DNA from: Syntrophorhabdaceae bacterium
GTDB lineage: Bacteria > Desulfobacterota > Syntrophorhabdia > Syntrophorhabdales > Syntrophorhabdaceae
DNA: 63,560 bases
NCBI GenBank assembly: GCA_035541755.1
Contig: DATKMQ010000080.1
Coordinates: 1 to 63,560 of the forward strand
Reading direction: 5' to 3'
Position numbers and translations under genes: made by a program
Notes under the pieces: generated by a model
Database searches by the model: none
What the model saw: only the letters and a program-made list of their open reading frames with translations
What the model was told of the DNA's origin: nothing
Shown: positions 48,112-63,560 of the stretch, in pieces
Layout of the letters: every line of letters starts with the position of its first letter
How positions within the stretch are numbered: the stretch's first letter is position 1

Positions 48112-48879
48112 ATGGAAAGGCTAGTTAAATTCGTCGCACACGTCAGTGCGTTCTCGAGACGTAAATCAGAAGACATAATTCGGGCGGGAAGGGTGAGAAT
48201 AAACGGCTCCGTGGTTACCGAACCGTTCCGCGAGGTTGTGGCTACCGACCGTATTTCGATCGACAACAGAGAGATCATCTCCGAGCCGGTTAAAATATAT
48301 ATCGCCCTTTATAAGCCGGACGGATACATGTCAGATCTTACAGACCCGAGAGGTCGAGGTATTGCCCGGGACCTCATCAAACTCGATGTAAAGCTCTATC
48401 CTGTGGGAAGGCTGGATTACCATTCGGAGGGGCTGATGATCTTCACCAATGATGGTGATTTTGCCAACCTGATCATGCATCCTCGCTACGAGGTTGAGAA
48501 GGAGTATTTCGTGAAATTCAAGGGGATTTTGACGAAAGACGAAATGAAACGCATTGAAAACGGGGTGATGGTGGACGGCGGGACACTGAAGGCACACAGG
48601 ATAACGTTTGTGCGCTCGGCCACACAGAACGCCTGGTACAGTGTGGTGGTTCACGAAGGCAAGAACCGCATGATACGTAAAATTGGGGAGGCGTTAGGCC
48701 ACCAGGTCCTGAAATTGAAGAGAATTCGTATAGGAAATCTGCTCATAGGCGACATGAAGCCTGGTGAGTACCGATATTTCGAGAAGAACGAAGTGCTCGG
48801 CCCGCCGAGACGGCAGACAAAAGCTGGGCATGATAAGAAACGGAGAGGATGGGACTCGAATCCTCGGATGAACCGGTGA
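48112..48879 (+). CDS. rluB: RsuA/RluB family pseudouridine synthase
   Basis: The N-terminal S4 RNA-binding domain (about 1-60, SRRKSEDIIRAGRVRINGSVV) and the catalytic domain with GRLDYHSEGLMIFTNDGDFAN (catalytic Asp) and EGKNRMIRKIGEALGH identify it. It modifies 23S or 16S rRNA; RluB versus RsuA/RluE cannot be settled from sequence alone. The last 26 residues are an oddity: after the expected end near KNEVLGPPRR, the frame runs into a tRNA-like remnant, and the final GWDSNPRMNR is antisense tRNA T-arm sequence. Confidence 0.88.
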   Translation: MERLVKFVAHVSAFSRRKSEDIIRAGRVRINGSVVTEPFREVVATDRISIDNREIISEPVKIYIALYKPDGYMSDLTDPRGRGIARDLIKLDVKLYPVGRLDYHSEGLMIFTNDGDFANLIMHPRYEVEKEYFVKFKGILTKDEMKRIENGVMVDGGTLKAHRITFVRSATQNAWYSVVVHEGKNRMIRKIGEALGHQVLKLKRIRIGNLLIGDMKPGEYRYFEKNEVLGPPRRQTKAGHDKKRRGWDSNPRMNR

Positions 48880-48903
48880 AATCGAAATCAAGGCCTGACC
48901 GGC
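48841..48903 (-). repeat. Decayed serine-tRNA-like 3' end (left copy, A)
   Basis: On the minus strand the sequence ends ...GGATTCGAGTCCCATCCTCTCCG, which looks like a T-arm plus acceptor 3' strand with discriminator G, as in serine tRNAs. A D-arm-like GCCGGTCAGGC lies at its other end. The T stem pairs at only three of five positions and no GGAGAGG 5' acceptor strand exists nearby, so it is not a working tRNA. Its last 23 bases match the right copy at 54643-54665 at 18 positions. Confidence 0.5.
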
Positions 48904-49396
48904 TATATACGGAATCCCTGCCAATTCCATCATGAGTTGGCCTCTTGTTCATGCGTGTTTCTTTCTTTGTTTTGCTTCTAAGAGATGCCCGCCCTCCAAT
49001 CTACGATGTCGTGTTGCCGCTCCATGGAGTGACCGGCGGGTGTGAGGCGTAAGGCGCTCTCATGATATGTGCGTATCTAAAAGTGTAGAGTCCCGTTGAC
49101 ATCTTTTTTATTTGTTTATTTCCTCGCTAGAGAGTACGATATGCTAAAAAAGAGTTCGGTTGTTTGCCGATATATCTTGCCAGTCGAGGATATATCAGCT
49201 AGTTCAACCGTATAGCGGCCCTTATCCGGCGTGAGACGCTTTAAGGATACGATGGTTCAACGCGCTGGATGGTTTCCCTTCGGAGAGAGGCCGAGTCTCA
49301 ATCTCAGACGAACCGCCTGGCTGGGCGTAACCTTGAGATCAGACGCCTTGAAGCTCCGCTAAAAGAGGCGGAAGCAAAACATTTACGGAGAGCAAG
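48904..49396. other. Region between rluB/tRNA-like remnant and mod
   Basis: About 490 bases without a convincing gene. It contains TTGACA at 49096-49101 without a good -10 partner, two copies of the palindrome GATATATC (49169-49176 and 49189-49196, 20 bases centre to centre) and a hairpin CCGC-TAAAAGA-GGCGG-type just before mod (about 49357-49373). Control elements for the mod-res genes are likely here. Confidence 0.4.
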
Positions 49397-51289
49397 ATGC
49401 AGAAGTTAACTACTCAGGATCCCGAAACCAAATCAGCCAGCATCATTACCGAGAATATCGGGAAACTAAAGGAACTTTTTCCCGAAGCCTTTTCCGAGGG
49501 AAGAATCGAATTTGAGGTGCTCAAACAGCTTCTTGGCGGTTCCGTGGAGGAACCGGAGGAAAAATATGGCCTCAACTGGCACGGCAAACGACGCGCACGC
49601 CAACTCGCCCTGACGCCAAGCACGGGGACCCTGCGCCCCTGTCCGGAGGAGAGTGTCGATTGGGAAACCACGCAGAACCTTATGATCGAAGGCGACAATC
49701 TTGAGGTCTTAAAGCTGTTACAGAAATCGTATGCCGGGAAAGTGAAGCTCATATATATAGATCCTCCATATAACACGGGCAGGGACTTTGTGTATCCTGA
49801 CGATTTTCAAGATAGCATCAAGAACTACCTTAAGCTGACGGGCCAGGTGGAGGGAGGTAAGAAGATCAGCTCCAACACTGAGGCCAGCGGCCGGTTTCAT
49901 ACTGACTGGTTAAACATGATGTATCCGAGGTTGAAGCTCGCCCGAAATCTGTTGCGGACGGATGGCGTGATATTTATAAGCGTTGACGACCACGAATTGG
50001 CAGGGCTCAGGAGTATGTGCGACGATGTTTTTGGAGAGGAGAACCGGCTTGCGATTCTCGTTTGGCAACATAGTGTTCAGCCCAAGGGGTACTCCGGGAC
50101 TTTTTCGGTCCACCACAACTTTGTTTTGTGTTACCAAAAAGGGGAAGATTTCGAGTTGACAAATCTTGACCGTAGAGACGAGCATAATAAGAATTACTCT
50201 AATCCGGACGGCGATCCCAACGGGCCGTGGCGACCCGGGGATGTGCGGAATGCGCTCTATCGTCCTAATCTCATATATGAAATAACGAGTCCCTCGGGGA
50301 AAAAGATTACTCCACCATCCAACGGATGGAGATGGAGCAAAAAGACGTTGGCATCTAAAATTCAGTCAGGGGAGATAGTCTTCTCTTCAGACGAGGCGCG
50401 CATTATCCGGAAAATATACCTTAACAAGCTCGAAGGCAGGACCCCGGAAACAATACTTTTCGGTAAAGATGTTGGAACTACTCGGGACGCAGCAGCCGAA
50501 ATTAAAGAATTGTTTGACGGAAATGTTCCTTTCGATACTCCAAAACCAACTGGGTTGGTTAGACATTTCATAAACCTTTCCGGCGCAAAAGGTTCAGACA
50601 TAGTTCTCGATTTCTTCGCAGGTTCAGGAACAACTGCCGAGGCCGTGTGGCGCCACAACCTGGAAAAACAAACCATGCTGCGGACTTTCTTAGTGCAACT
50701 TCCCGAACAGTTAGATTCTGAAGATGGGCAACAGAAGGCCGCTAAAGACTTCTGTGATAGCCTCGGTAAACCGCGCACAATTGTCGAGCTGACAAAGGAG
50801 CGCTTGAGGCGTGTCAGCGAGAAGATCAAAAAGGAAGAGTCACTATCTGCAGGAGATCTTGGTTTTCGGGTTCTGAAACTCGATACCTCGAATATTCGAT
50901 CCTGGGAGCCTGATCCAGAGGATCTTGGCAAGACTCTTTTTGAAAATATCGAACACATAAAAACGGATCGTAGCCAGGCTGACATCCTTTATGAACTGCT
51001 TGTCAAATTAGGCATTGATCTTTGCGTGCCTATCGAGATGAGGGTGATAGTGGGTAAGTCGGTCCACTCATTAAGTTACGGCACGCTATTTGTTTGTCTC
51101 GATGAGAGCATTGCCCGTGAAGATGTCGAACCACTGGCTTTGAGCATTGTGAACTGGCGCAACGAGGCGAGCCCGGCCGGCGATAGTACCGTTGTCTTTC
51201 GTGACAGTGCTTTCCGTAACGACGTGGCCAAAACCAATCTTACCGCAATCCTTGGGCAGCATGGCATAGAAAGTGTACGGAGCTTGTAG
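49397..51289 (+). CDS. mod: Type III restriction-modification methyltransferase subunit (Mod)
   Basis: 630 residues. Motif IV DPPYNTG (about 125) precedes motif I FFAGSGTTAEAVW (about 410), the order of beta-class N6-adenine methyltransferases; the variable region between them is the probable target-recognition domain. The C-terminal part (about 500-630) is the usual helical region that binds Res. GGAGAG precedes the ATG. No simple-sequence repeat that would suggest phase variation was seen in the gene. Confidence 0.93.
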   Translation: MQKLTTQDPETKSASIITENIGKLKELFPEAFSEGRIEFEVLKQLLGGSVEEPEEKYGLNWHGKRRARQLALTPSTGTLRPCPEESVDWETTQNLMIEGDNLEVLKLLQKSYAGKVKLIYIDPPYNTGRDFVYPDDFQDSIKNYLKLTGQVEGGKKISSNTEASGRFHTDWLNMMYPRLKLARNLLRTDGVIFISVDDHELAGLRSMCDDVFGEENRLAILVWQHSVQPKGYSGTFSVHHNFVLCYQKGEDFELTNLDRRDEHNKNYSNPDGDPNGPWRPGDVRNALYRPNLIYEITSPSGKKITPPSNGWRWSKKTLASKIQSGEIVFSSDEARIIRKIYLNKLEGRTPETILFGKDVGTTRDAAAEIKELFDGNVPFDTPKPTGLVRHFINLSGAKGSDIVLDFFAGSGTTAEAVWRHNLEKQTMLRTFLVQLPEQLDSEDGQQKAAKDFCDSLGKPRTIVELTKERLRRVSEKIKKEESLSAGDLGFRVLKLDTSNIRSWEPDPEDLGKTLFENIEHIKTDRSQADILYELLVKLGIDLCVPIEMRVIVGKSVHSLSYGTLFVCLDESIAREDVEPLALSIVNWRNEASPAGDSTVVFRDSAFRNDVAKTNLTAILGQHGIESVRSL

Positions 51290-51464
51290 TACACTGTTCT
51301 AACGTTCGGACCAGGAAATTGAATATGCTTGTGCTCCTCCTCGCGGGCACGTTTCAAATAGTGCCTGGAAACATTCGTCAAACATGGTACCGCGCCCCAC
51401 TCGTAGGTGCACACGGCAGATACTTGTGGGGAGCAGACGCTGGATCATGAGATGAGAGCTACCT

Positions 51465-54449
51465 ATGAAACTCCACTTTGATCCTAATCTGGACTTCCAA
51501 AAACAGGCTATAGATGCTGTCTGCGATCTATTTCGCGGGCAGGAAACCTGCCGTACAGAATTTACTGTCACCCACGGTCCGACGGACCCCCAGATGCGTT
51601 TCGCCTTCGCACGGTACGACCTGGGTATCGGAAACCGCCTTGCGTTATTCGAAGATGAGATTCTGAAAAATCTGAACGATATTCAGCTCCGGAACGGACT
51701 TATGCCTTCAACATCACTCGCATCGCGCGACTTTACGGTGGAGATGGAAACGGGTACCGGAAAAACCTATGTCTATCTCCGGACCATCTTCGAGCTTAAC
51801 AAGCGGTACGGGTTCACTAAATTTGTCGTTGTCGTTCCCTCGGTGGCCATCAAGGAAGGGGTCTACAAATCCCTTCAAATCATGGAAGAACACTTTCGTG
51901 CCATCTATACCAACATTCCTTTCGAGTATTTCCTCTATGACTCGCCCAAACTCGGCCAGGTACGCAACTTCGCTACCAGTAACCAGATACAGATCATGAT
52001 AGTGACAGTCGGTGCGATCAACAAGAAAGACGTCAATAACCTTTACAAGGACTCTGAAAAGACGGGTGGTGAGAAGCCCATCGACCTGATTAAAGCTACA
52101 GGGCCCATCCTCATCGTCGATGAACCGCAGAGCGTGGATGGGGGACTTGCAGGGCGCGGCAAAGAGGCACTCGGGGCTATGAATCCATTGTGCACCTTAC
52201 GTTATTCTGCGACGCACGTAGACAAACACCACATGGTCTTTCGTCTTGATGCGGTTGACGCTTATGAGCGCGAGCTCGTGAAGCAGATCGAGGTTGCCTC
52301 TGCTTCCATCGAGGAAGCCTTCAACAAACCTTATGTGCGTCTTCTGACGGTCGGCAACAAGCGCGGTGTCATTACGGCAAAAGTTGAGATCGACGTGCAG
52401 GCAGGCCTTACTGTTCGACGTCAGGAAAAAATCGTGCAGGATGGCGACAACCTGGAACAGGCTACAAGTCGTGCCGTCTATGAGAATTGTCATATTGGGG
52501 AAATCCGTGTCGAGAAAGGTAATGAGTTTATGGAACTACGCGTGCCTCAAGCCCGGGTCTATCTTCGCATGGGCGAAGCATATGGGGACGTAGATGCGCT
52601 CGCTATCCACCGCGAGATGATCCGGCGAACAATTAGAGAGCATCTGGACAAGGAAAAACGGCTCGGGCATCAAGGCATCAAAGTCTTGAGCCTTTTCTTC
52701 ATTGATGTCGTGGAGAAGTACCGCAAATATGACCAGGACGGTAATCCCGTCAAGGGCGATTATGCACGTATTTTTGAGGAGGAGTATGAGCGGCTCGCCA
52801 GGCATCCCGACTACCAGACCCTCTTTCAGGAGGTGGACTTGAGGCGTGCCGCCGAAGAAGTACACAATGGGTACTTTTCCATCGACAGGAAGAATATCGG
52901 GGGAAAGACTGTGGAAGTACTTAAAGACACCCGTGGCGATTCAAAAGCCGATGATGGTACGTATAGCCTTATCATGAGAGACAAGGAGAAGCTTTTGAGT
53001 TTTGAAACTCCTCTTAAATTCATCTTCTCGCACTCGGCATTACGAGAGGGCTGGGATAACCCGAACGTTTTTCAGATTTGTAGCCTGCGAGATATCCGGA
53101 CGGAGATGGAACGCCGTCAGACGATCGGCAGAGGTCTCCGTTTATGCGTAAACCAGGATGGCGAGAGACTTCGGGGATTTGAAACCAACACGCTCACCGT
53201 CATCGCTACCGAAGGCTACGAGCAGTTCGCCGAGAACCTCCAGAAGGAGATCGAGGAAGATACTGGCATCCGTTTTGGCATTGTAGAACAGCACCAGTTT
53301 GCAGCGATAGGAGTACTGAGCGCCGACGGCACTATTTCGCCCATGGGTGCCGATCAATCAAAGGCTCTGTGGGAATACCTGCGCACCAAAGGATATGTCG
53401 ACGTCAAGGGTAAAGTACAGGATTCGCTAAGAGAGGCGCTTAGAGCGGGCACACTGATGGTGCCGGAAACATTTGCCACTCAGCTACCGCAGATTAAGGA
53501 GGTGCTGCACAAACTGGCAGGTAAACTGGAAATCAATAACGCTGATGAGCGCAGGCACGTGCGAACGAGACAAGCTGAGCTTCACAGCGCGGAATTCAAG
53601 GCCCTTTGGGACCGAATAAAGCATAAGACTATCTATCGCGTGCAATTCGACAACGAAAAACTCATAAAAAACTGTATTGACTTGTTGCGGCAAGGTCCGC
53701 CTATCATGAAAACCAGATTACAATGGCGTAAAGCCGACATCGCTATCGGGAAGGCTGGGATCGAGGCCACCGAACGCGCAGGCGCGGCAACGGTGGTACT
53801 TGATGAAGAAGACATCCAGCTTCCTGACCTGCTGACTGATTTGCAAGACCGGACTCAACTTACGCGGCGCACAATCGCACACATTCTTGTGGAGAGTGGG
53901 CGGCTGAATGATTTCAAATCCAATCCCCAGCAGTTCATCGAAGTATCCGGAGAACTCATCAATCGTACTAAGCGCATGGCCATTGTTGACGGGATCAAAT
54001 ACCAACGACTGGGGGACGAATATTATTACGCGCAAGAGCTGTTTGACCAGGAGGAACTGACAGGATACCTCAAAAATATGCTCATCGACATGCGGAAATC
54101 CGTGCTCGAGGATGTGATCTGCGATTCGGGCACAGAGGCCAATTTTGCTCAACAGTTGGAGAACAATGAAGCTGTCAAGGTCTACGCCAAGTTACCCGGC
54201 TGGTTCAGAGTGCCCACGCCGCTTGGATCTTACAATCCCGATTGGGCGGTACTGATAGAAAAGGATGGTACAGAAAGGCTTTACTTTGTCGTGGAAACCA
54301 AAAGCAGCTTGTTTGCTGACGACCTTCGTGACCGTGAGAGTGCAAAGATAGCCTGCGGAGAAGCACATTTTAAGGCACTGGCTATCGATAATAATCCGGT
54401 CGAATTTAAGAGGGCAACCAAATTGGAAGACCTATTGGCATCGTCTTGA
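51465..54449 (+). CDS. res: Type III restriction-modification endonuclease/helicase subunit (Res)
   Basis: 994 residues. Superfamily 2 helicase motifs: Walker A METGTGKT (94-101), motif II DEPQ (VDEPQSVDG), motif V/VI SALREGWDNPNVFQI and RRQTIGRGLRL. The C-terminal PD-(D/E)xK nuclease is present (NPDWAVLI ... VVETKSS), so cleavage activity should be intact. It follows mod with a 175-base gap that holds no recognised gene. Confidence 0.94.
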   Translation: MKLHFDPNLDFQKQAIDAVCDLFRGQETCRTEFTVTHGPTDPQMRFAFARYDLGIGNRLALFEDEILKNLNDIQLRNGLMPSTSLASRDFTVEMETGTGKTYVYLRTIFELNKRYGFTKFVVVVPSVAIKEGVYKSLQIMEEHFRAIYTNIPFEYFLYDSPKLGQVRNFATSNQIQIMIVTVGAINKKDVNNLYKDSEKTGGEKPIDLIKATGPILIVDEPQSVDGGLAGRGKEALGAMNPLCTLRYSATHVDKHHMVFRLDAVDAYERELVKQIEVASASIEEAFNKPYVRLLTVGNKRGVITAKVEIDVQAGLTVRRQEKIVQDGDNLEQATSRAVYENCHIGEIRVEKGNEFMELRVPQARVYLRMGEAYGDVDALAIHREMIRRTIREHLDKEKRLGHQGIKVLSLFFIDVVEKYRKYDQDGNPVKGDYARIFEEEYERLARHPDYQTLFQEVDLRRAAEEVHNGYFSIDRKNIGGKTVEVLKDTRGDSKADDGTYSLIMRDKEKLLSFETPLKFIFSHSALREGWDNPNVFQICSLRDIRTEMERRQTIGRGLRLCVNQDGERLRGFETNTLTVIATEGYEQFAENLQKEIEEDTGIRFGIVEQHQFAAIGVLSADGTISPMGADQSKALWEYLRTKGYVDVKGKVQDSLREALRAGTLMVPETFATQLPQIKEVLHKLAGKLEINNADERRHVRTRQAELHSAEFKALWDRIKHKTIYRVQFDNEKLIKNCIDLLRQGPPIMKTRLQWRKADIAIGKAGIEATERAGAATVVLDEEDIQLPDLLTDLQDRTQLTRRTIAHILVESGRLNDFKSNPQQFIEVSGELINRTKRMAIVDGIKYQRLGDEYYYAQELFDQEELTGYLKNMLIDMRKSVLEDVICDSGTEANFAQQLENNEAVKVYAKLPGWFRVPTPLGSYNPDWAVLIEKDGTERLYFVVETKSSLFADDLRDRESAKIACGEAHFKALAIDNNPVEFKRATKLEDLLASS

Positions 54450-55405
54450 TTATGAAGCATTACGTGGATTTGAGCCGCAATATACCGAAGCGGTGGTAGA
54501 TAGGAAGCAGGTCATGAATAGCGCTATTGGCAAAGCGTTCTCAATTCGGAGCATTTTCTTCGGTGAAATTCGAGGCCGATATTCGGAGGAGACGCGAATC
54601 GACTACTGAATAAATAGATCAATAAGATCAATTAGTTATAAACGGAGAGGGTAGGATTAGAACCCACCTCTATAAGCTGTAAACCGTTGATAGTCAACGG
54701 TCCAAAAATTCACTCGGCACTATTTCGCACTAAATGGTCGTAGATCAACCAAGAAATCCATCCGATTTAACCGAATAGTTAGGACAAGATTTTAGTCTGA
54801 TTTTCTCTGAATCATGTATATTCTTCGCCCGCAGAAGATGCGAAGAGTTGATCGCTTGGAGGGGTATATATGCATTTTGGTGTTACAGGTGTTACCTTCT
54901 ATCTACACAGGGGCTTTATTACTGCGTTGAAGAGCAAGATCTGTTAATCGTAGAAAGTGTTACTGAGAAGTTACAAAGGTTATCCGCTATTCATACACAC
55001 GTGATTCGCACCTCTCACACGCACCTGCTCAAACCGATATATTAGCACCAGTAGAGCAGGGCGGGATCAGAAAAACAGAGCGGGTCCTTCGCCGGGGACG
55101 AATCGCTTACGGTGCGCTAAACCTCACAAAACGACAGCTTTTGGGACAGTTTGCGTGGGACACGGGACAAAATCAGGAGCTTGTGAGAAATGTTATACCA
55201 CCATGATTCGGCGAGAAGGGAATCTCCTACGATCGTTTCCACCCCAAGTGTTGCGCGAGTATTCTTCGGGCAAAGCCTTGGTTTTCGCGTCGGTGTTTGC
55301 CAACAAGGCAACGATGTAGACGCCCGTCTGTCGTCAGGAAGGTCAGATACCTTCAGGGATTTCATCTTTATCTCTTGGCCCGTTTAGTGCCACTGTAATA
55401 ACCTT
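54450..55405. other. Region downstream of res without convincing genes
   Basis: About 950 bases. It contains the second tRNA-like remnant (54643-54718), a 6-base hairpin CTTCGC/GCGAAG (54823-54845) and several short open frames that look random. It looks like decayed sequence at the edge of the restriction locus. Confidence 0.5.
54643..54718 (-). repeat. Decayed serine-tRNA-like sequence (right copy, B)
   Basis: On the minus strand, 76 bases cover positions equivalent to 10-73 of a class II tRNA: D-arm start GCCGAGTGA, a 17-base arm CCGTTGACTATCAACGG with a perfect 5-base stem, a long variable stretch, a T-arm with five pairs around TTCTAAT and the 3' strand CCTCTCC plus discriminator G. The 5' acceptor strand is absent and the loop lacks U33. 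It lies in the same orientation as the copy at 48841-48903, and mod and res are between them. Confidence 0.55.
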
Positions 55406-55648
55406 ATGACAGATTGCAAACGATGCAGTAGAGATAGCGAAGATCCAAAGACAGTAACCTGCTCTCCTCAACCAATAGAGTACCAGGACGACATGTCTTT
55501 TCAACGTTTGCCCTATCCGGAAGATACAAAGGAACCATGTTCTGTGTGCCACGTAATGCCGGGCGGTATCCACCACGAAGGCTGCTATATGGAGAGATGC
55601 CCCCGGTGCGGAAAAAGGCTCATATCCTGCGGATGCCCGAAAAAATAA
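55406..55648 (+). CDS. Small Cys-rich zinc-ribbon-like hypothetical protein
   Basis: 80 residues with Cys pairs CKRC, CSVC, CPRC and CGC. The end, GGIHHEGCYMERCPRCGKRL, is like a C-terminal zinc-ribbon pattern seen in many small bacterial proteins of unknown role. There is no clear ribosome site. It may be a small metal-binding protein or a remnant of a longer one; it stands alone between the restriction locus and tonB. Confidence 0.55.
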   Translation: MTDCKRCSRDSEDPKTVTCSPQPIEYQDDMSFQRLPYPEDTKEPCSVCHVMPGGIHHEGCYMERCPRCGKRLISCGCPKK

Positions 55649-55788
55649 CGTCCAACCATTCTGAAGTTGTTTAGTACACCTGCTACTGTTCACTTTATCT
55701 TTTCGATGGGAATTGAAGATAACGGTTTGAAATGGAGTATTCGCGGGGTACTCTTATCCTGCCTGAAACCGCAGAAACCTTGGTACGC

Positions 55789-56628
55789 TTACTGCAACCT
55801 AAAGACAATGGGAATTTTTAACTCAGCCTTGACTGGTGGCTTGGGAAAAGGCTGAGATCGCCTGATTGTCTCGATCACAGACCTGTCGAGCATGTCATAT
55901 CCGGAGCTTTCCATAATCTTCACGTTTTGGACGAGCCCATTTTCGAGAATGACGAAGTCCACCGTGACTATTCCCTTGAGGCCCATACGTTTTGCCCCGG
56001 GCGGATACGCCAGATTCTTCAAAATGACTGTCCTGATGTAGGCAAACTGTGCGGCTCCGTACCGGGTAGGGGCGTCGCCGGGAGTCGCCCAAGGGCCGTC
56101 ATTTCCATCCGCGCTGGATCCCACTCGGCCACCACTCGCTGCATTTCTGCCAGCAAGAAGCACACCCCCCTGGCCGGTATCTGCCTTCGTTCGGACCTCG
56201 CTCCGTGAACCAGGAACATCAATGTGGTTCCCGTCGGATGCGGTGTCCGCCGGAGCAGATGATCCGGGCAATCGGAAAGCGGATGGGTCAACCATCACGG
56301 ACCCGATGATCTCTCCGTGTCCAATTTTCCCTTCCTTCCCGGCTGGGCTTGGACTTCCAGAACCTGCCCGTGCTGCGTAGGGCTGGATTGGGTGCCGGGC
56401 GGCTCCCTTCGACTGGCTTGGTGCACCGTGCCCATGAAGACCACCGGTCGGGCCGCCTTGATCCTGTGCACCGAGGAAAACCGTGATGATCCCTTCATTG
56501 TGCGTGCGTTTGAACAGTTCACCGGCAAAGAAGACCAGAACAGCCACGAGGACGCAGTGGAGGAAGACAGACAAAAGAAATGCCCTCACGACAGGATTCT
56601 TTCCATCCAGCGGTTCATGGGCTAACAA
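55789..56628 (-). CDS. tonB: Energy transducer TonB
   Basis: 279 residues: one N-terminal membrane helix (about 15-37), a Gly/Ser/Pro-rich periplasmic spacer (about 50-190) and the C-terminal TonB domain (KNLAYPPGAKRMGLKGIVTVDFVILENG ... IVFRLQ). It passes proton-motive energy to outer-membrane receptors. The start is TTG, with AGGAGG about 12 bases ahead, overlapping the btuD stop. It is the last gene of the cobalamin operon and is likely to serve the BtuB receptor. ExbB and ExbD are not in the window. Confidence 0.88.
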   Translation of the reverse strand: MLAHEPLDGKNPVVRAFLLSVFLHCVLVAVLVFFAGELFKRTHNEGIITVFLGAQDQGGPTGGLHGHGAPSQSKGAARHPIQPYAARAGSGSPSPAGKEGKIGHGEIIGSVMVDPSAFRLPGSSAPADTASDGNHIDVPGSRSEVRTKADTGQGGVLLAGRNAASGGRVGSSADGNDGPWATPGDAPTRYGAAQFAYIRTVILKNLAYPPGAKRMGLKGIVTVDFVILENGLVQNVKIMESSGYDMLDRSVIETIRRSQPFPKPPVKAELKIPIVFRLQ

Positions 56629-57419
56629 TCCGATTGTGAGCCTCCTTCCCGTGAAACGGGCCGAATGAAGGGCCTCGTTGACGAGTGCCCGTTAAGCACA
56701 TCGACGGGTGTCTCATAGACCCTTTCTATGGTTTCCTTAGTCAGAACTGATTCTGGCGGACCGTCGGAGTGGATAACGCCTCTATCGAGGAGCACAAGCC
56801 TGTGGCAATACTGACTTGCCAGGTTAAGGTCATGGAGTATCATGACCACGGTGAGTCGTCTTTCCCCGTTGAGCCGCGCCATCAGGTCCAAGAGGCTTAC
56901 CTGGTGTCTAATGTCAAGGTGACTTGTAGGTTCATCCAAAAAAAGGAGCCTCGGTTCCTGAGCGAGGGCCCGGGCCACAAAGGAAAGCTGTCGTTCGCCA
57001 CTACTCAGAGTGTTGACAGGCCTGTCCTTAAGATGCAAAATGCCCGCAACGCTCATAGCCTCCTGAGCTGCTATGAGGTCTCTTTTCCCATCGAGAATCT
57101 GGTAGGGTTCTCTGAGGGGGATCCGGCCGAGGAGCACGAGATCCTCGGTCCGCATGCCGAGGGCATGGTCGATCGAGCCTATGACCGCCATTCGAGTGGC
57201 AAGTTTCCGGTAACTCACCGTTGCAATATCTTTTCCTTCGAGCAGGATCTGCCCGTTAGCGGGTGTTATCACCTTCGTTGCTACCCGCATGAGGGTCGTC
57301 TTGCCCGATCCGTTGGGCCCTATGAGGCCCACGAATTCTCCTTGGCGTACGGTGACGCTCACGTCCTTGAGGACCATGTGACCGTTATATCCGCAGCTTA
57401 CCTGTCGAAGGTCGAGCAC
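56622..57419 (-). CDS. btuD: Cobalamin ABC transporter ATP-binding protein
   Basis: 265 residues from a GTG at 57419, which has GGAGGT at ideal distance and overlaps the btuC stop; the longer open frame up to 57677 lies in btuC. Walker A GPNGSGKTT, signature LSSGERQLSFVARAL, Walker B LLFLDEPTSHLD and the H-loop MILHDLNLA are all present. It powers the BtuC permease. FecE-type siderophore transport is the general alternative, but the riboswitch and cbiZ point to corrinoids. Confidence 0.92.
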   Translation of the reverse strand: MLDLRQVSCGYNGHMVLKDVSVTVRQGEFVGLIGPNGSGKTTLMRVATKVITPANGQILLEGKDIATVSYRKLATRMAVIGSIDHALGMRTEDLVLLGRIPLREPYQILDGKRDLIAAQEAMSVAGILHLKDRPVNTLSSGERQLSFVARALAQEPRLLFLDEPTSHLDIRHQVSLLDLMARLNGERRLTVVMILHDLNLASQYCHRLVLLDRGVIHSDGPPESVLTKETIERVYETPVDVLNGHSSTRPFIRPVSREGGSQSDC

Positions 57420-58429
57420 TATAGACCTCCCGCGTGGGTTTTCTTGCTCAAGGCATAGATGAAGAGCACCCCACCCACTATGCCCGTGACGACGCCGACG
57501 GGAAGCTCCAGCGGAAGAACCACCATCCTCGCGATGGTATCCGAAAGAATGAGAAAGACGGCTCCAGCGAGGAAGGAGGACACAAGGAGGATACGGTGGT
57601 CCGGACCCACAAGAAGACGGAGAAGGTGGGGGACCACGAGACCCACGAAGCCGATGACACCCGCCAGGGAAACGCACAGGCCCGTGACGAGCGAGGTGAG
57701 CACGAAGAGCATCCGCTTCGTTCTCTCCACGTGAATGCCCAGGTGGAGCGCTTCCTCTTCGCCTATGCTCAGGGCGTTGAGGTCAAAGCAGAAGAAATAC
57801 GAAAGCACGAGGGCCGCGATCGTGGCGATGACGGCCACCTTCACGAGAAGCCAGTCGGTCTCGCCCAGAGATCCCATCATCCAGAAGAGAATGCTGTGAA
57901 TGTCCTCCAAGCGCGAAAAGGACATGATCAAAAGCACGAGCGATGAGCATATGAAGTTCACCATAATCCCGACGAGCAACAGAGCCTGTACACTCAATAT
58001 GCCTTTTTTTGCGCTTAAAGCACGGAGGAAGAAGATCGCGGCCAACGCCCCCGCAAAGCCCGCCAGGGGGAGTACATAAGGTCCTGCAAGACGGCTCAAA
58101 CCCAGGATACCGCCCACGGAGACGCCGAGAACAGCACCGCCCGAGACACCGAGCGTATACGGTTCCACCAAAGGATTGCGGAAGAGACCCTGAAGAATGA
58201 CCCCGGCAAGACTTAAACCCCCTCCCACGGCGAATCCGAGCAGAACCCTGGGAAGGCGTATGTCGAGAATGATGCTTTCGTAGGTGCCACCTGCACCCGC
58301 GCGCCAAAGACGGATGGCCCTGGGCAGGGAGATGCCAGCCGGTCCAACCGACAGCGACAAGAGACAGGCAAGAATCAAGAGTGCCACAAGAAGCCCCACG
58401 ACCATGGCCCAGATCAGAGGCCGACTCAT
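57419..58429 (-). CDS. btuC: Cobalamin ABC transporter permease (FecCD family)
   Basis: 336 residues with about nine to ten membrane segments. Family hallmarks: DIRLPRVLLGFAVGGGLSLAG, NPLVEPYTLGVSGGAVLG and GLVVPHLLRLLVGPDHR. ATG at 58429 overlaps the btuF stop (ATGA) and has GGAGGTG ahead. Confidence 0.94.
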   Translation of the reverse strand: MSRPLIWAMVVGLLVALLILACLLSLSVGPAGISLPRAIRLWRAGAGGTYESIILDIRLPRVLLGFAVGGGLSLAGVILQGLFRNPLVEPYTLGVSGGAVLGVSVGGILGLSRLAGPYVLPLAGFAGALAAIFFLRALSAKKGILSVQALLLVGIMVNFICSSLVLLIMSFSRLEDIHSILFWMMGSLGETDWLLVKVAVIATIAALVLSYFFCFDLNALSIGEEEALHLGIHVERTKRMLFVLTSLVTGLCVSLAGVIGFVGLVVPHLLRLLVGPDHRILLVSSFLAGAVFLILSDTIARMVVLPLELPVGVVTGIVGGVLFIYALSKKTHAGGL

Positions 58430-59358
58430 TTTTTCACCTCCAGACCGGGATGGACTGCCTCCACGATGGTTTCCAGGGCATCGACAAATGTTACAGGTGT
58501 GGGACTGCACGTCTCGTAAGGGTCGAGAATGAATATCCGGTTGTTTCTGACCGCTGCCATCTTGGAGAATCTCTGCCATGTTCTCTTCTCGTTCTCTGCT
58601 GTGATACCCATCTCCACGATGAGGATGACATCCGGATTCAGGCTAAGCACCTCTTCCCTGCTAAATAGGCCCGTCCTGAATTGGGCTCCGATGTTCGTCG
58701 CCCCGGCAAGCTCGACCATATCGTTCATAACGGAATCTCGCGTGGCCGTAAAAAGGGGTTTTGATCCAATCTGGATAAAGACCTTCGGTTTTTCAAGCCC
58801 GCGCACCTTGCGGCTAATAGTCGCTACCTTGCGCTCAGCAGCCCGGACAATCTCTCTGGCGCGGTCCTCTTCCCCCACCAACTGGCCGAGCTTGATGAAT
58901 TCATCGTTCATTTCAGCGAAAGATGCCGGCTCGTCAAAAACGGTGACGGCAAGCTTCAACTCTCTCAGGCTTCTTATGGCTCTTGGTTCGGTGAGCGATG
59001 TGGCAAAAACAAGATCGGGCTTGAGATCGAGGATCTTTTCGATGCTCACTTGTGTCACGCTTCCGACCTTCTCCTTGCTACGCGCTTCCGGTGGCCTGGT
59101 ACAATACGTGGTCACGCCAAGCAGCCGGTCCTGTACCCCGAGAAGATAGAGTTTCTCCGTGACCGTCGGTCCCAGGGAAACGAGCGTGAGGGCTTTTACG
59201 TCTCTAACCGGGGCTGCATGGGCGATCCTCACGCACCAGAGGGTCATGAGCAGCAAGCCCCCCACGAGGATAAGGCATACGTAGTGAGGTAAGGTACGCG
59301 GGCGACCTCCTACGTGGGTCTGGGGAAGCCTTTCTCTTATCATGGCGGTCGCTACCAT
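58426..59358 (-). CDS. btuF: Cobalamin ABC transporter substrate-binding protein
   Basis: 310 residues. An N-terminal membrane helix or signal sequence (about 26-48) precedes a BtuF/FecB fold (LVSLGPTVTEKLYLLGVQDRLLGV, IEKILDLKPDLVFA, VLSLNPDVILIVEM). There is no lipobox Cys. The start overlaps the cobO stop by seven bases; an ATG at 59343 is also possible. It carries corrinoids from the outer membrane to BtuCD. Confidence 0.9.
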   Translation of the reverse strand: MVATAMIRERLPQTHVGGRPRTLPHYVCLILVGGLLLMTLWCVRIAHAAPVRDVKALTLVSLGPTVTEKLYLLGVQDRLLGVTTYCTRPPEARSKEKVGSVTQVSIEKILDLKPDLVFATSLTEPRAIRSLRELKLAVTVFDEPASFAEMNDEFIKLGQLVGEEDRAREIVRAAERKVATISRKVRGLEKPKVFIQIGSKPLFTATRDSVMNDMVELAGATNIGAQFRTGLFSREEVLSLNPDVILIVEMGITAENEKRTWQRFSKMAAVRNNRIFILDPYETCSPTPVTFVDALETIVEAVHPGLEVKK

Positions 59359-59885
59359 TCGATCCCCTTCTGGGCCTTCACTCCTGCGTGGTAAGGGTGT
59401 TTCAGCTCTTTCATTTCCGTCACCAAGTCGGCCATCTCGATGAGGGCCGGTGGAGCGTTACGGCCAGTCACGACGACATGCAAACCTTCAGGTCTCTTCC
59501 GAAGGGAGTCGAGCACTTCCGATTCATCCACCATCTTATATTTAAGAAGCCAGGTAAGCTCATCCAGGATAACGAGGCGGTGCCGTCCTGCCGCAATGAC
59601 CGATTTCGCCATCTCCCATCCGAGCCTCGCTGCCTCGCGGTCCTTTTCGAGATCCTTCGATTTCCAGGTAAAGCCTTCCCCCATCACATGGAAATCGAGA
59701 AGACCCTCAAAGAAAGAATCCTTGAATCGCGCGGCGCTCTTTAATTCTCCGTATTTCCAATGGCCTTTTATGAACTGGATAATGCAGACCGGCAATTCGT
59801 GTCCCAGGGCGCGAAAGGCCAGGCCCAACGCGGCTGTGGTCTTGCCCTTTCCATTCCCCGTGTTAACGATGAGAAGTCCGTTCAT
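59352..59885 (-). CDS. cobO: Cob(I)yrinic acid a,c-diamide adenosyltransferase (CobO/BtuR/CobA type)
   Basis: 177 residues from the ATG at 59885, which follows GAGGA and starts after the cbiZ stop. The P-loop GNGKGKTTAALGLA binds ATP; IQFIKGHWKYGE and VILDELTWLLKYKMV are family motifs. It adds the upper adenosyl ligand to reduced corrinoids, here to salvaged ones. Confidence 0.94.
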   Translation of the reverse strand: MNGLLIVNTGNGKGKTTAALGLAFRALGHELPVCIIQFIKGHWKYGELKSAARFKDSFFEGLLDFHVMGEGFTWKSKDLEKDREAARLGWEMAKSVIAAGRHRLVILDELTWLLKYKMVDESEVLDSLRKRPEGLHVVVTGRNAPPALIEMADLVTEMKELKHPYHAGVKAQKGIEW

Positions 59886-59889
59886 TTCT

Positions 59890-61056
59890 TTAGTCCTCTT
59901 TGCCCGTATCATCGTGCCATTTGTCCTTGAATCCTAACACGAAAGAGTCCTCTATGAGGCGCAAGAATTCTACATCCCCATCTTGACGCGGCTTCTCTGC
60001 CAGCATGCCCCGATAGGTTGTGAAGGACGAATAATCGCCAGAGACAGCGGCGGCTATTTGCGCACCGTAAGTCGCCCGCACTTCGGGCGAACAACTTCGC
60101 GGAAGGATGCCCCACATCTCCTTATCGCGCAAGTGCACCAGCGCGGCGACAGCCGCCACAACGAGAGGGTCGCGCTCTATGGTGTCGAAGTTTACCGCGA
60201 AGAGCACTCCTTTTTTTGTTCCCAAACGATCTGCAATAGAGTTTCTCATCCCCTCCCTTGTTGCCCCAAAGCGTTCGAGGTGACGCACGCTCGACCGTTG
60301 TGTTTCCGGCGTCAGGGAATCCTGGAGGGCAAGCGTGCCCGCGACGGCGTCATGGACAGTTGTGCCGATTAGCTCTCCGAGAGAGGAGTGGTTACCGGCG
60401 CTCGCCAACGGTACGCCCGTGTGAAGCCTGGCCGCCACGCCGATCTGGTCGGTTCCTGTTCCAGTCGCGAGACGATTGGAGTAACGGGAGTTGACGGCCA
60501 GTTCCTGAAGCACAGCGGTCTTGGCCTCCGTAGCGGTCACCACAGTGCGCACCATAGCTCCGTCGGTCAGTTCGTGGTTGATAAAGAGCATGATGTTGAT
60601 GGTGCCGTGGAGCACAGGCTCTTCTCCGGATACGGACTCGAATATATGGTCATGCTCGTAGACGGAGGCAGGGTCTCCCGCACGCCCGGCGTTGCCTTCC
60701 ACTCCGCCGGTGCAGACTGCCACCACCACGAGGTCTCTCAATCGACCCTCCTTGGTGACAGCGAAGCGCATATTCGCAGCCGTGCCGAGGGTAGCGCACC
60801 TCTCTCCCGGCAGGCCATATTGACGGGAAACCAGGGCCCGATAGGCCAGAGGATCGCGGACAGCGATCATGTGGGCTGAAGGGTGGTGACCCGCAGGCTC
60901 GGATGACTGGTGGTTATATAGGTAATCGAGGTCGTCCCGCAAACCTCCCGCCGCCTGGCACGTGGAGATTATCCGGTGAGGCACGAGGAAACGCGCGTAA
61001 ACGATCTTTTCTTCACGGTGGATTTCCACGCCGTCGTAATAAGTGCCCAGAAGCAT
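59890..61056 (-). CDS. cbiZ: Adenosylcobinamide amidohydrolase CbiZ with C-terminal extension
   Basis: 388 residues from the ATG at 61056 (AAAGGAG upstream). The CbiZ core lies in about 1-240: VPHRIISTCQAAGGLRDDLDYLYNHQS, INIMLFINHELTDGAMV and VTATEAKTAVLQELAVNSRYSNRLATGTGTD. CbiZ cleaves the amide bond to aminopropanol in adenosylcobinamide or pseudocobalamin, giving cobyric acid for rebuilding with another lower ligand. The last 150 residues (AVNFDTIERDPLVVAAVAALVHLRDKE region) belong to no domain that I recognise. It lies between btuB and cobO in a B12-riboswitch operon. Confidence 0.92.
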   Translation of the reverse strand: MLLGTYYDGVEIHREEKIVYARFLVPHRIISTCQAAGGLRDDLDYLYNHQSSEPAGHHPSAHMIAVRDPLAYRALVSRQYGLPGERCATLGTAANMRFAVTKEGRLRDLVVVAVCTGGVEGNAGRAGDPASVYEHDHIFESVSGEEPVLHGTINIMLFINHELTDGAMVRTVVTATEAKTAVLQELAVNSRYSNRLATGTGTDQIGVAARLHTGVPLASAGNHSSLGELIGTTVHDAVAGTLALQDSLTPETQRSSVRHLERFGATREGMRNSIADRLGTKKGVLFAVNFDTIERDPLVVAAVAALVHLRDKEMWGILPRSCSPEVRATYGAQIAAAVSGDYSSFTTYRGMLAEKPRQDGDVEFLRLIEDSFVLGFKDKWHDDTGKED

Positions 61057-61163
61057 TTCTTCTTCTCCTTTCATATCTTCACGCCCGTCCTTCGGTCGGA
61101 CCATCTCTCACTCGCCGCCGCGGACGATTCTTCCGGCTTATCTTAAGGATCGCGCGATCGACG

Positions 61164-63158
61164 CTACTTTCCGAATTCATACTGGATCCTCAGAAAGAAC
61201 TGTCTACCCGGTGATGGGTACAGGGCCACATCGTTGGCGCTGGCCACACCCATTTCTGCGTACCTCTTGTCCGTAAAGTTCTTGACCGTGAAAAGGGCCG
61301 AAAGTTTCTTATACGTGTATCCGACAGAGCCGTCAAAAGTCGTGTAGCCCGGCAGTTGCTCGTGGGTGTTCGCCTGGTCGCTTATGGGGTACCGCGCACC
61401 CGTGTACACCGAGGCCAGGCCGAACCGCCAATTACGGAGCGCGTAGGTCAGCTTTGCTGACACCTTGTTCTGGGGTACGAGAGGTATGTGGTTTCCGTCG
61501 AACGCTCCCCCGTCGAAGAAGGCCTCCGTGTAGGAGTAAGCCACATCCAGCCCAAGGCCTTCGGCCAGGCGGACAAAGACCGCCGATTCGAACCCCTGAC
61601 GCTTGGTTCTGTCGTAGTTATCGTTGCTGACAGTGAGTGGATTGAAGAAGATCTCGTTTCTGTTGAAGCTCCGGAAATAGGTGACCGTTCCCGTGAGCAT
61701 GGGCAGGGGGCTTAACCGGATGCCCGCATCCAGCTCTTCCGTGGTCTGGGGTGTGAGCGCCGTGTTAACCGTGGTCGGGTAAAATGTGCCGCCGTAGTAA
61801 TACCCATACGAAATGAATTCGTCGGTCACGGGGAAACGGAAGCCCTTAGCGTACGTGAGAAAAGCATTTGCCTTGTCAAGGATCGTGTAATTGGCGGAGA
61901 AGCGGTAAGCGTCCCTGTCATAGCGGTAAGTAGTATCTGACCCCCGGACGTCATACGCCGACTGTTGTTTTCGGTAACCCGCCTCCAAAACGAGGTCGTT
62001 CACAGGGTAGAACTTATCGTCCACGTAGTAAGCGAAGTCCCGTCGGTCGATATTGCCTTGCGATAGCGACGGGCCGAAGAAACTCACATAGTATGAGCCG
62101 AACGTCGTGGCGTATTTGTAATAGTCCACGCCGGAGACAAGCGTGTTTTTCATTGTTCCAAGTGGTGTTGAGATAACGAGCTTCGGGGTGACGCCGTAGG
62201 TTTGGAGCTGGGTCTTGAGATCATAGGTACTGCCGGAGCCGTAATCGTAGAAGGAAGCAGTGTGGCGGTCGCGGTAAGACCCACCGAGAGAGAAAGTCAC
62301 ATCGTCTCGGAATTTGAGTTCCGGGATGAAGTCGAAGAAGTTATCTTCCGTCGACGCCGTGTCGTTGGGGTTAGTCGAGTCCTTGGGGTCAACTGCGCCG
62401 GAGCGGAGGGCAGACCAGAAAAGATAACCCGGCAGTCCGTAATCGTCACGATGATGCCCCGTGCTGAGTTGCAGAGTGAGGTTGTTATTCACGTCGAATC
62501 CAAAGATGCCGGTAAGATCCTTTGCATGATAAGCGTTGTTGTGACGGTAGCCGTCCGTATCGGTGTCCGAGGCCAGGGCAAGGTATGAGAACTTGTCCTG
62601 CTTACCAGAGACTGTGACTTCCGGTTTCACGTAATTGTAACTCCCCACCGTGGTGGTGGCGGTCACCCTGGGTGCGCCTTCTCCTTGCTTGAGTATGATG
62701 TTCACCGCTCCGGCCGCTGCGTTGTCCCCGAAGAGCACGGTTGCGGGACCCCGGTACACCTCGATCCTCTCAATAGCATCGACCGGTATCTGGGAAAAGT
62801 CCGCTCCCGACAAGTCGGGGGCATTCACGCGTCTGCCGTTCACCAGGACGAGAACGTTCTGTTGGGCTGCCTCGCCATATCCCCGAATATCGACATTCGC
62901 CGTTTTGGGATTACCGAGAAAATTCTGAGGAAATACGCCCGGCTCTTTTTCGAGAACATCAACGATCGTCTGCGCGCCCGATGCCTGAATCTGGTCAGCC
63001 GTGATCACGGTGACATTGGCAGGGGCTTCTCTCAAAGGGGACGGGGTCCGTGATGCGGTGACGACTATCTCGTCCAGGTTGAGAGGGGTATCGTCTGAAA
63101 AAGCCATACAGGGGAAAAGGGAAACTGCGAGAACTGCCAGGAAAAGAAATGCTTTCAT
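61164..63158 (-). CDS. btuB: TonB-dependent cobalamin receptor
   Basis: 664 residues. Signal peptide MKAFLFLAVLAVSLFPCMAFS, TonB box DEIVVTASRTP, plug domain (VLEKEPGVFPQNF, RGYGEAAQQNVLVLVNGRRVN, IERIEVYRGPATVLFGDNAAAGAVNIIL) and a beta barrel ending in a terminal aromatic-rich strand (GRQFFLRIQYEFGK). The ATG at 63158 follows AGGAGG directly; the longer frame begins in the riboswitch leader. Substrate assignment rests on the riboswitch and the neighbouring genes. Confidence 0.93.
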   Translation of the reverse strand: MKAFLFLAVLAVSLFPCMAFSDDTPLNLDEIVVTASRTPSPLREAPANVTVITADQIQASGAQTIVDVLEKEPGVFPQNFLGNPKTANVDIRGYGEAAQQNVLVLVNGRRVNAPDLSGADFSQIPVDAIERIEVYRGPATVLFGDNAAAGAVNIILKQGEGAPRVTATTTVGSYNYVKPEVTVSGKQDKFSYLALASDTDTDGYRHNNAYHAKDLTGIFGFDVNNNLTLQLSTGHHRDDYGLPGYLFWSALRSGAVDPKDSTNPNDTASTEDNFFDFIPELKFRDDVTFSLGGSYRDRHTASFYDYGSGSTYDLKTQLQTYGVTPKLVISTPLGTMKNTLVSGVDYYKYATTFGSYYVSFFGPSLSQGNIDRRDFAYYVDDKFYPVNDLVLEAGYRKQQSAYDVRGSDTTYRYDRDAYRFSANYTILDKANAFLTYAKGFRFPVTDEFISYGYYYGGTFYPTTVNTALTPQTTEELDAGIRLSPLPMLTGTVTYFRSFNRNEIFFNPLTVSNDNYDRTKRQGFESAVFVRLAEGLGLDVAYSYTEAFFDGGAFDGNHIPLVPQNKVSAKLTYALRNWRFGLASVYTGARYPISDQANTHEQLPGYTTFDGSVGYTYKKLSALFTVKNFTDKRYAEMGVASANDVALYPSPGRQFFLRIQYEFGK

Positions 63159-63204
63159 ATGAGACCTCCTTATGCCTCGTAAGGATAGACCCAACTTGTT
63201 TTAA

Positions 63205-63385
63205 CCCAAGGTTTCCTGGCTCAGGGCAGATGGTGCGCCTTCCCGTCCATTCTCACGGACAGTGGCTTGGGGCGAACTCTTCGTCCGCCGTGCACCAGCC
63301 TTTTGTGCCCATCACAGTTGCGGGACAGCGGCAGGTTCTCACTGCACTTCCCTTGCAGGCCAAACAGCAGGTTGCGGTGTCATTA
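63205..63385 (-). ncRNA. Cobalamin riboswitch (AdoCbl-type) leading the btuB operon
   Basis: Read on the minus strand, the conserved elements occur in order: GGGAAGTGCAGTGAGAACC, GCTGTCCCGCAACTGT, the B12 box GCCACTGT and the closing GAGCCAGGAAACC. It ends about 45 bases before the btuB start, so binding of adenosylcobalamin should close the ribosome site or end transcription and shut the whole uptake/salvage operon. Confidence 0.95.
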
Positions 63386-63560
63386 TATCATCGGAGAGGG
63401 ACGCGCGCAAGCGCAAAGTACAGGTGGCTTTAATTACCATCTATAAAATATGCGTTCATTTTGGGTGCTCTCCGCGATGTACCGAGAAATATTGGCATCC
63501 ATGGATAGTTCTTTTTCTTACTGATGTTGAACTTGGTATGACGGGCGGTTGAATGTTTGT
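63386..63560. other. Upstream region of the cobalamin operon
   Basis: AT-rich towards 63425-63470; must contain the promoter of the riboswitch transcript. The minus strand has TATTTTATAGAT around 63437-63448 as a possible -10 region. No gene was seen. Confidence 0.4.

What the first reader, a model, noticed from the sequence alone, without database searches (positions are those of the whole stretch)
48841..54718. Type III restriction locus bracketed by two serine-tRNA-like 3' remnants in direct orientation
Both sequences end on the minus strand in a T-arm-like block and CCTCTCCG, with 18 of 23 bases identical, and both keep a D-arm-like start, but neither has a 5' acceptor strand. Integrative elements often insert in the 3' part of tRNA-Ser and leave such duplicates. 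The interval carries only mod and res plus non-coding flanks and no integrase, which looks like a decayed or minimal defence island.
Basis: partly seen in the sequence, partly recalled or inferred. Interest (0 to 1): 0.62.

Follow-up and report, generated by a model that had tools for sequence, protein, structure and literature searches.

The report
Restriction genes in a tRNA-Ser island
The two restriction-modification genes lie in foreign DNA that was inserted, in at least two layers, into the end of a serine tRNA gene; the insertion is well supported and is an ordinary example of a known kind of mobile defence island.

Summary
Both tRNA-Ser 3'-end copies are real. They differ by 3 and 2 of 23 bases from the genome's own tRNA-Ser(CGA); chance would give about 0.03 such matches per window even at 5 mismatches. 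Neither continues into the rest of a tRNA, so the 'D-arm' claim fails. The insertion idea is right, and the missing comparison could be made. In three relatives rluB is followed directly by intact tRNA-Ser(CGA), tadA and ruvCAB (empty site). In two others the same site carries a tRNA remnant, and one of these shows an integrase beside it. In this genome rluB ends at the first remnant, while intact tRNA-Ser(CGA)-tadA-ruvCAB lies on contig C19 with an integrase against its 3' end. The insertion therefore does not close at 54718: it runs to the contig end and contains remnant 2 as an internal junction. The right half of that junction matches end sequences at other loci, and a matching junction on C76 abuts a broken integrase gene. 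Best reading: tandem accretion of tRNA-Ser(CGA) islands, the first layer now holding only an intact-looking type III mod-res pair, i.e. a decayed or cis-mobilizable element. Known kind; modest interest.

The parts
48112..48879 (+). rluB (23S rRNA pseudouridine synthase B), chromosomal flank; its frame reads into remnant 1 and gains the tail RRGWDSNPRMNR
   Evidence: syntenic with tRNA-Ser-tadA-ruvCAB in G001, G016, G036
48841..48863 (-). remnant 1: tRNA-Ser(CGA) 3' end (T-arm + acceptor 3' strand), outer attachment-site half next to rluB
   Evidence: 3/23 mismatches to tRNA-Ser(CGA); same place as the remnants of G032 and G035
48864..49396 (.). non-coding left flank of the mod-res layer; no integrase remains found
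49397..51289 (+). mod, type III DNA methyltransferase (630 aa), intact frame, motifs DPPY and FAGSGTT
   Evidence: PF01555; PADLOC MTase_III 4e-219
51465..54449 (+). res, type III restriction endonuclease (994 aa), intact frame, helicase motifs TGTGKT and RQTIGRGLRL, C-terminal endonuclease domain
   Evidence: PF04851, PF19778; PADLOC REase_III E=0
54621..54642 (.). stretch next to remnant 2 that resembles the stretch just past the broken integrase gene on C76
   Evidence: window 54621-54689 vs C76:6468-6535, 80%, E 1e-7
54643..54665 (-). remnant 2: tRNA-Ser(CGA) 3' end, internal attachment junction between two layers
   Evidence: 2/23 mismatches to tRNA-Ser(CGA); third copy on C76:6490
54678..54689 (+). 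arm-like motif TGTAAACCGTTG, 35 nt from the core start (34 on C76)
54651..55190 (.). non-coding end module of the second layer, repeated at C5 and C128 (about 85%)
55789..63353 (-). cargo of the inserted region beyond remnant 2: corrinoid salvage operon (tonB, btuD, btuC, btuF, cobO, cbiZ, TonB receptor) behind a cobalamin riboswitch
   Evidence: cbiZ missing in all 36 family relatives searched

Best explanation
This is a composite genomic island at tRNA-Ser(CGA), built by tandem accretion. An integrative element carrying or later acquiring a type III restriction-modification pair inserted into the 3' end of the tRNA-Ser(CGA) gene that lies just after rluB. Integration displaced the old 3' end to the rluB side (remnant 1) and rebuilt the tRNA with the element's own copy. 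One or more further elements inserted at the same tRNA, leaving remnant 2 as an internal junction and pushing the intact tRNA-Ser-tadA-ruvCAB away, now on contig C19 next to an integrase gene. The first layer has lost its integrase, so mod-res now sits between two attachment-site halves as a decayed or cis-mobilizable element. mod and res look intact and should methylate self DNA and cut unmethylated invading DNA in the usual type III way. Shown: remnants, empty and occupied sites in relatives, position of the intact tRNA and integrase, absence of an integrase in the interval. Inferred: order of insertions, loss rather than never having had an integrase, any present mobility, restriction activity.
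For: Remnants match tRNA-Ser(CGA) far beyond chance. Empty sites rluB - tRNA-Ser(CGA) - tadA - ruvC - ruvA - ruvB in G001 (same genus), G016, G036; occupied sites in G035 (remnant with integrase facing it) and G032 (remnant, contig ends there). Own genome: tRNA-Ser(CGA) at C19:2137-2227 with an integrase frame (953-2131) ending at it and tadA-ruvCAB on its other side. Third remnant on C76:6490 just after a truncated integrase frame, with a junction similar to remnant 2 on both sides. Arm-like 12-mer at 34-35 nt from both cores. res present in 1 of 36 family relatives (44%), cbiZ in none. Shared DNA with the closest mod-res loci stops at the gene edges. Tandem islands bounded by tRNA/tmRNA 3'-end repeats, some without an integrase, are described (PMC3146451, PMC5704250).
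Against: C80, C76 and C19 are separate contigs with no end overlap found, so the full array is not assembled and the place of C76 is inferred. The inner flank of remnant 1 does not resemble that of remnant 2, so the two junctions may come from different element families. No trace of the lost integrase was found in the mod-res layer. G+C of mod-res equals that of the chromosome.
Confidence: 0.85

Rival explanations
1. One non-autonomous element: mod-res plus flanks, 48841-54665, is a single unit with matched attL and attR, moved in trans by integrases such as the one on C19, and never had an integrase of its own.
For: Two direct tRNA-Ser halves 5.8 kb apart with only mod-res between; no integrase trace; the genome has many integrases, 11 tRNA loci having one beside them.
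Against: Left stretch of remnant 2 resembles the stretch just past the broken integrase on C76, suggesting a lost integrase; none of the 80 mod-res loci from other genomes shares DNA with the flanks, so no second copy of the unit is known.
Confidence: 0.2
2. Separate events: remnant 1 is a solitary attachment half from an old lost island, and mod-res arrived between the remnants by homologous recombination or another route.
For: Inner flanks of the two remnants differ; remnant 1 is the more decayed (3 vs 2 mismatches).
Against: Both remnants are in the same orientation, nearest to the same isoacceptor, and lie where tandem accretion predicts.
Confidence: 0.15
3. Chance or assembly artefact.
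For: The genome is a draft in 180 contigs.
Against: Match statistics, third copy, and conserved empty and occupied sites in independent genomes.
Confidence: 0.03

Closest known systems
Tandem genomic islands at ssrA of Dehalococcoides (PMC3146451)
   Same: Tandem islands bounded by 3'-end repeats of a tRNA-like gene; several lack an integration module and were proposed to be cis-mobilizable elements joined by accretion
   Different: Target is tmRNA and integrases are serine recombinases; here tRNA-Ser(CGA) and tyrosine recombinases; cargo is reductive dehalogenases, not restriction
CIME (cis-mobilizable element) in accretion with an ICE/IME, as in Streptococcus (PMC5704250, citing Pavlovic 2004 and Bellanger 2011)
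   Same: Attachment halves on both sides, no integrase, an intact target gene with an integrase at the far end of the array
   Different: Excision and transfer not tested here; no conjugation genes looked for; array not assembled in one contig
Type III restriction-modification systems (mod-res)
   Same: Gene pair, order and domains
   Different: Nothing unusual seen; the closest hit, in a deltaproteobacterial MAG, is 72-75% identical in both proteins

Membership tests
Genomic island at a tRNA gene | direct repeat of the tRNA 3' end at the far boundary | tested here: met
Genomic island at a tRNA gene | empty site in relatives | tested here: met
   G001, G016, G036
Genomic island at a tRNA gene | integrase next to the intact tRNA | tested here: met
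   C19:953-2131 + against tRNA-Ser(CGA) 2137-2227 -
Genomic island at a tRNA gene | both ends seen on one continuous piece of DNA (a check of the assembly, not a property that an island could lack) | tested here: inconclusive
   ends lie on C80 and C19, draft assembly, no end overlap
Cis-mobilizable element (CIME) | attachment sites on both sides | tested here: met
   remnants 1 and 2; functional state unknown
Cis-mobilizable element (CIME) | no own integration genes | tested here: met
Cis-mobilizable element (CIME) | derived from an ICE or IME | tested here: inconclusive
   short similarity to the C76 integrase-side stretch only
Cis-mobilizable element (CIME) | excision or transfer together with a neighbour element | not testable with these tools
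   needs PCR or reads
Type III restriction-modification | Mod with N6/N4 methylase domain, Res with helicase and endonuclease domains | tested here: met
Type III restriction-modification | methylation and cleavage activity | not testable with these tools
   needs assay

The most novel reading that the evidence does not exclude
A minimal 5.8 kb defence unit, mod-res between two tRNA-Ser attachment halves, that has no integrase and is moved in trans by any of the several tRNA-site integrases of its host, together with a family of islands sharing one non-coding end module at different tRNA genes.
Probability: 0.2. Interest if true: 0.45.

Novelty: new member of a known kind. Interest (0 to 1): 0.3.

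Why it matters
It documents a tRNA-Ser(CGA) integration hotspot next to rluB in this bacterial family, with empty and occupied sites in different species, and shows how restriction genes and a corrinoid salvage operon stack up in one island. The recurring junction sequences could help to find island ends in related draft genomes.

Tried and rejected
Rfam and ARAGORN on the remnants: nothing, expected for 23-nt ends. D-arm similarity: rejected by shuffles. Integrase traces in 48831-49400, 51281-51470 and 54441-55800: only weak hits, best E 0.024. Repeat search with the left flank: only a 20-nt match on C165. Assembly overlap between ends of C80, C19, C76, C5: none. Neighbourhoods of 80 mod-res relatives: 15 loci with a tRNA and 20 with an integrase-like gene within the fetched flanks, without a consistent arrangement; no shared flanking DNA.

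Full report
What is in the sequence. On the + strand, CGGAGAGGATGGGACTCGAATCC lies at 48841-48863 and CGGAGAGGGTAGGATTAGAACCC at 54643-54665, the reverse complement of a tRNA-Ser 3' end. They agree with each other at 18 of 23 bases (81% over 26 nt). The genome's four tRNA-Ser genes are CGA on C19, GGA on C16, GCT on C12 and TGA on C119. Both copies are closest to CGA, with 3 and 2 mismatches. No other site in the window comes below 7 mismatches, and simulated windows give 0.03 sites at 5 mismatches and none lower. The rest of the tRNA is absent: the inner 80 nt score no better than shuffled sequence.

The genes between. mod (49397-51289) has the N6/N4 methylase domain and res (51465-54449) has the ResIII helicase and RE_endonuc domains; PADLOC models name both type III with near full-length matches. 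Both frames are open and keep the expected motifs (read from the translations). The closest hit in other genomes, in a deltaproteobacterial MAG, is 72% (Mod) and 75% (Res) identical. Only 1 of 36 relatives of the same family has a Res at the threshold used, at 44%, so the pair was most likely acquired horizontally. DNA similarity to the closest loci ends at the gene edges.

Empty and occupied sites. In G001 (same genus), G016 and G036, rluB is followed within about 110 bases by an intact tRNA-Ser(CGA) in the opposite direction, then tadA, ruvC, ruvA and ruvB. In G035 and G032 rluB is followed instead by a perfect tRNA-Ser 3' remnant. In G035 an integrase gene points at it; the G032 contig ends there. 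In the window genome rluB is followed by remnant 1, while intact tRNA-Ser(CGA), tadA, ruvC, ruvA and ruvB sit on C19. An integrase frame on C19 (953-2131 +, PF00589) ends about five bases before the tRNA, and the contig starts about 950 bases upstream of it. So rluB and tRNA-Ser-tadA have been pushed apart, most simply by inserted DNA; a chromosomal rearrangement in addition cannot be excluded from a draft.

Where the insertion ends. The window is the whole of contig C80. Since the native right neighbour is on C19, everything from 48841 to 63560 is on the inserted side. This includes a corrinoid salvage operon at 55789-63353 whose cbiZ is absent from all 36 family relatives and all 7 further relatives of the order that were searched. 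Remnant 2 is therefore an internal junction and not the end of the island.

Why remnant 2 is a junction. A third tRNA-Ser(CGA) 3' end lies on C76:6490, 20 bases after a 189-aa frame whose end resembles the C-terminus of the C19 integrase (30%, E 6e-10) but which no longer matches PF00589. The C76 and window junctions align across both sides of the core (80% over 69 bases, E 1e-7). The motif TGTAAACCGTTG stands 34-35 bases from each core start. The 540 bases to the right of remnant 2 recur at C5 and C128 (about 85%). There a further left part contains the inverse motif and, on C5, a tRNA-His 3' end matching C111. This fits an end module used by related elements at more than one tRNA gene. That its motifs bind integrase is inference.

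Mechanism. Tyrosine integrases that use tRNA 3' ends rebuild the gene with the incoming copy and leave the old end at the far boundary (established knowledge). A second element using the same site leaves an internal copy. This tandem accretion, and its product, a layer with attachment sites but no integrase (CIME), are described in PMC5704250. Tandem ssrA islands of Dehalococcoides, including 15 without an integration module, are a close parallel (PMC3146451). The mod-res layer fits this description. Whether it once had an integrase or was always dependent is open: no integrase trace was found, but the 22 bases left of remnant 2 resemble the stretch just past the broken integrase of C76.

Verdict. 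The finding is real and its interpretation is right in kind. The boundaries need correcting: it is the left part of a larger composite island at tRNA-Ser(CGA), not a closed 5.9 kb island. Known kind, new member.

Noticed in passing
window 54651-55190; C5:4352-4887 (L112), C128:23210-23745 (L113), part on C58 (L116): Non-coding dispersed repeat of about 540 bp with arm-like inverted motifs; C5 and C128 copies extend left, on C5 to a tRNA-His 3' remnant (C128 keeps part), and the C128 copy overlaps the start of a katG-like frame.
   Followed up: partly
window 55341-55653; C40:46785-47096, C115:13358-13659, shorter on C73 and C134: Second dispersed repeat, 81-87% identical in the longer copies, containing an 80-aa cysteine-rich frame (55406-55648 +) with no Pfam match.
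   Followed up: no
window 55789-63353: Complete-looking corrinoid salvage operon with a cobalamin riboswitch at 63209-63353 (-), G+C 56% against 50% for the chromosome to the left; cbiZ absent from all family relatives searched.
   Followed up: partly
G000: C11, C19, C27, C44, C53, C72, C88, C96, C111, C116, C119: Eleven tRNA loci have a tyrosine integrase within about 200 bases, so this genome seems rich in tRNA-site insertions.
   Followed up: no
window 48829-48879: The rluB frame runs through the tRNA remnant and gains the tail RRGWDSNPRMNR; such WDSNPR tails are antisense tRNA 3' ends.
   Followed up: no
C76:1261-3189 and neighbours (L104): The contig with the third remnant carries an FtsH-like protease, a BON-domain-like protein and a sensor kinase, by eye from the translations.
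   Followed up: no
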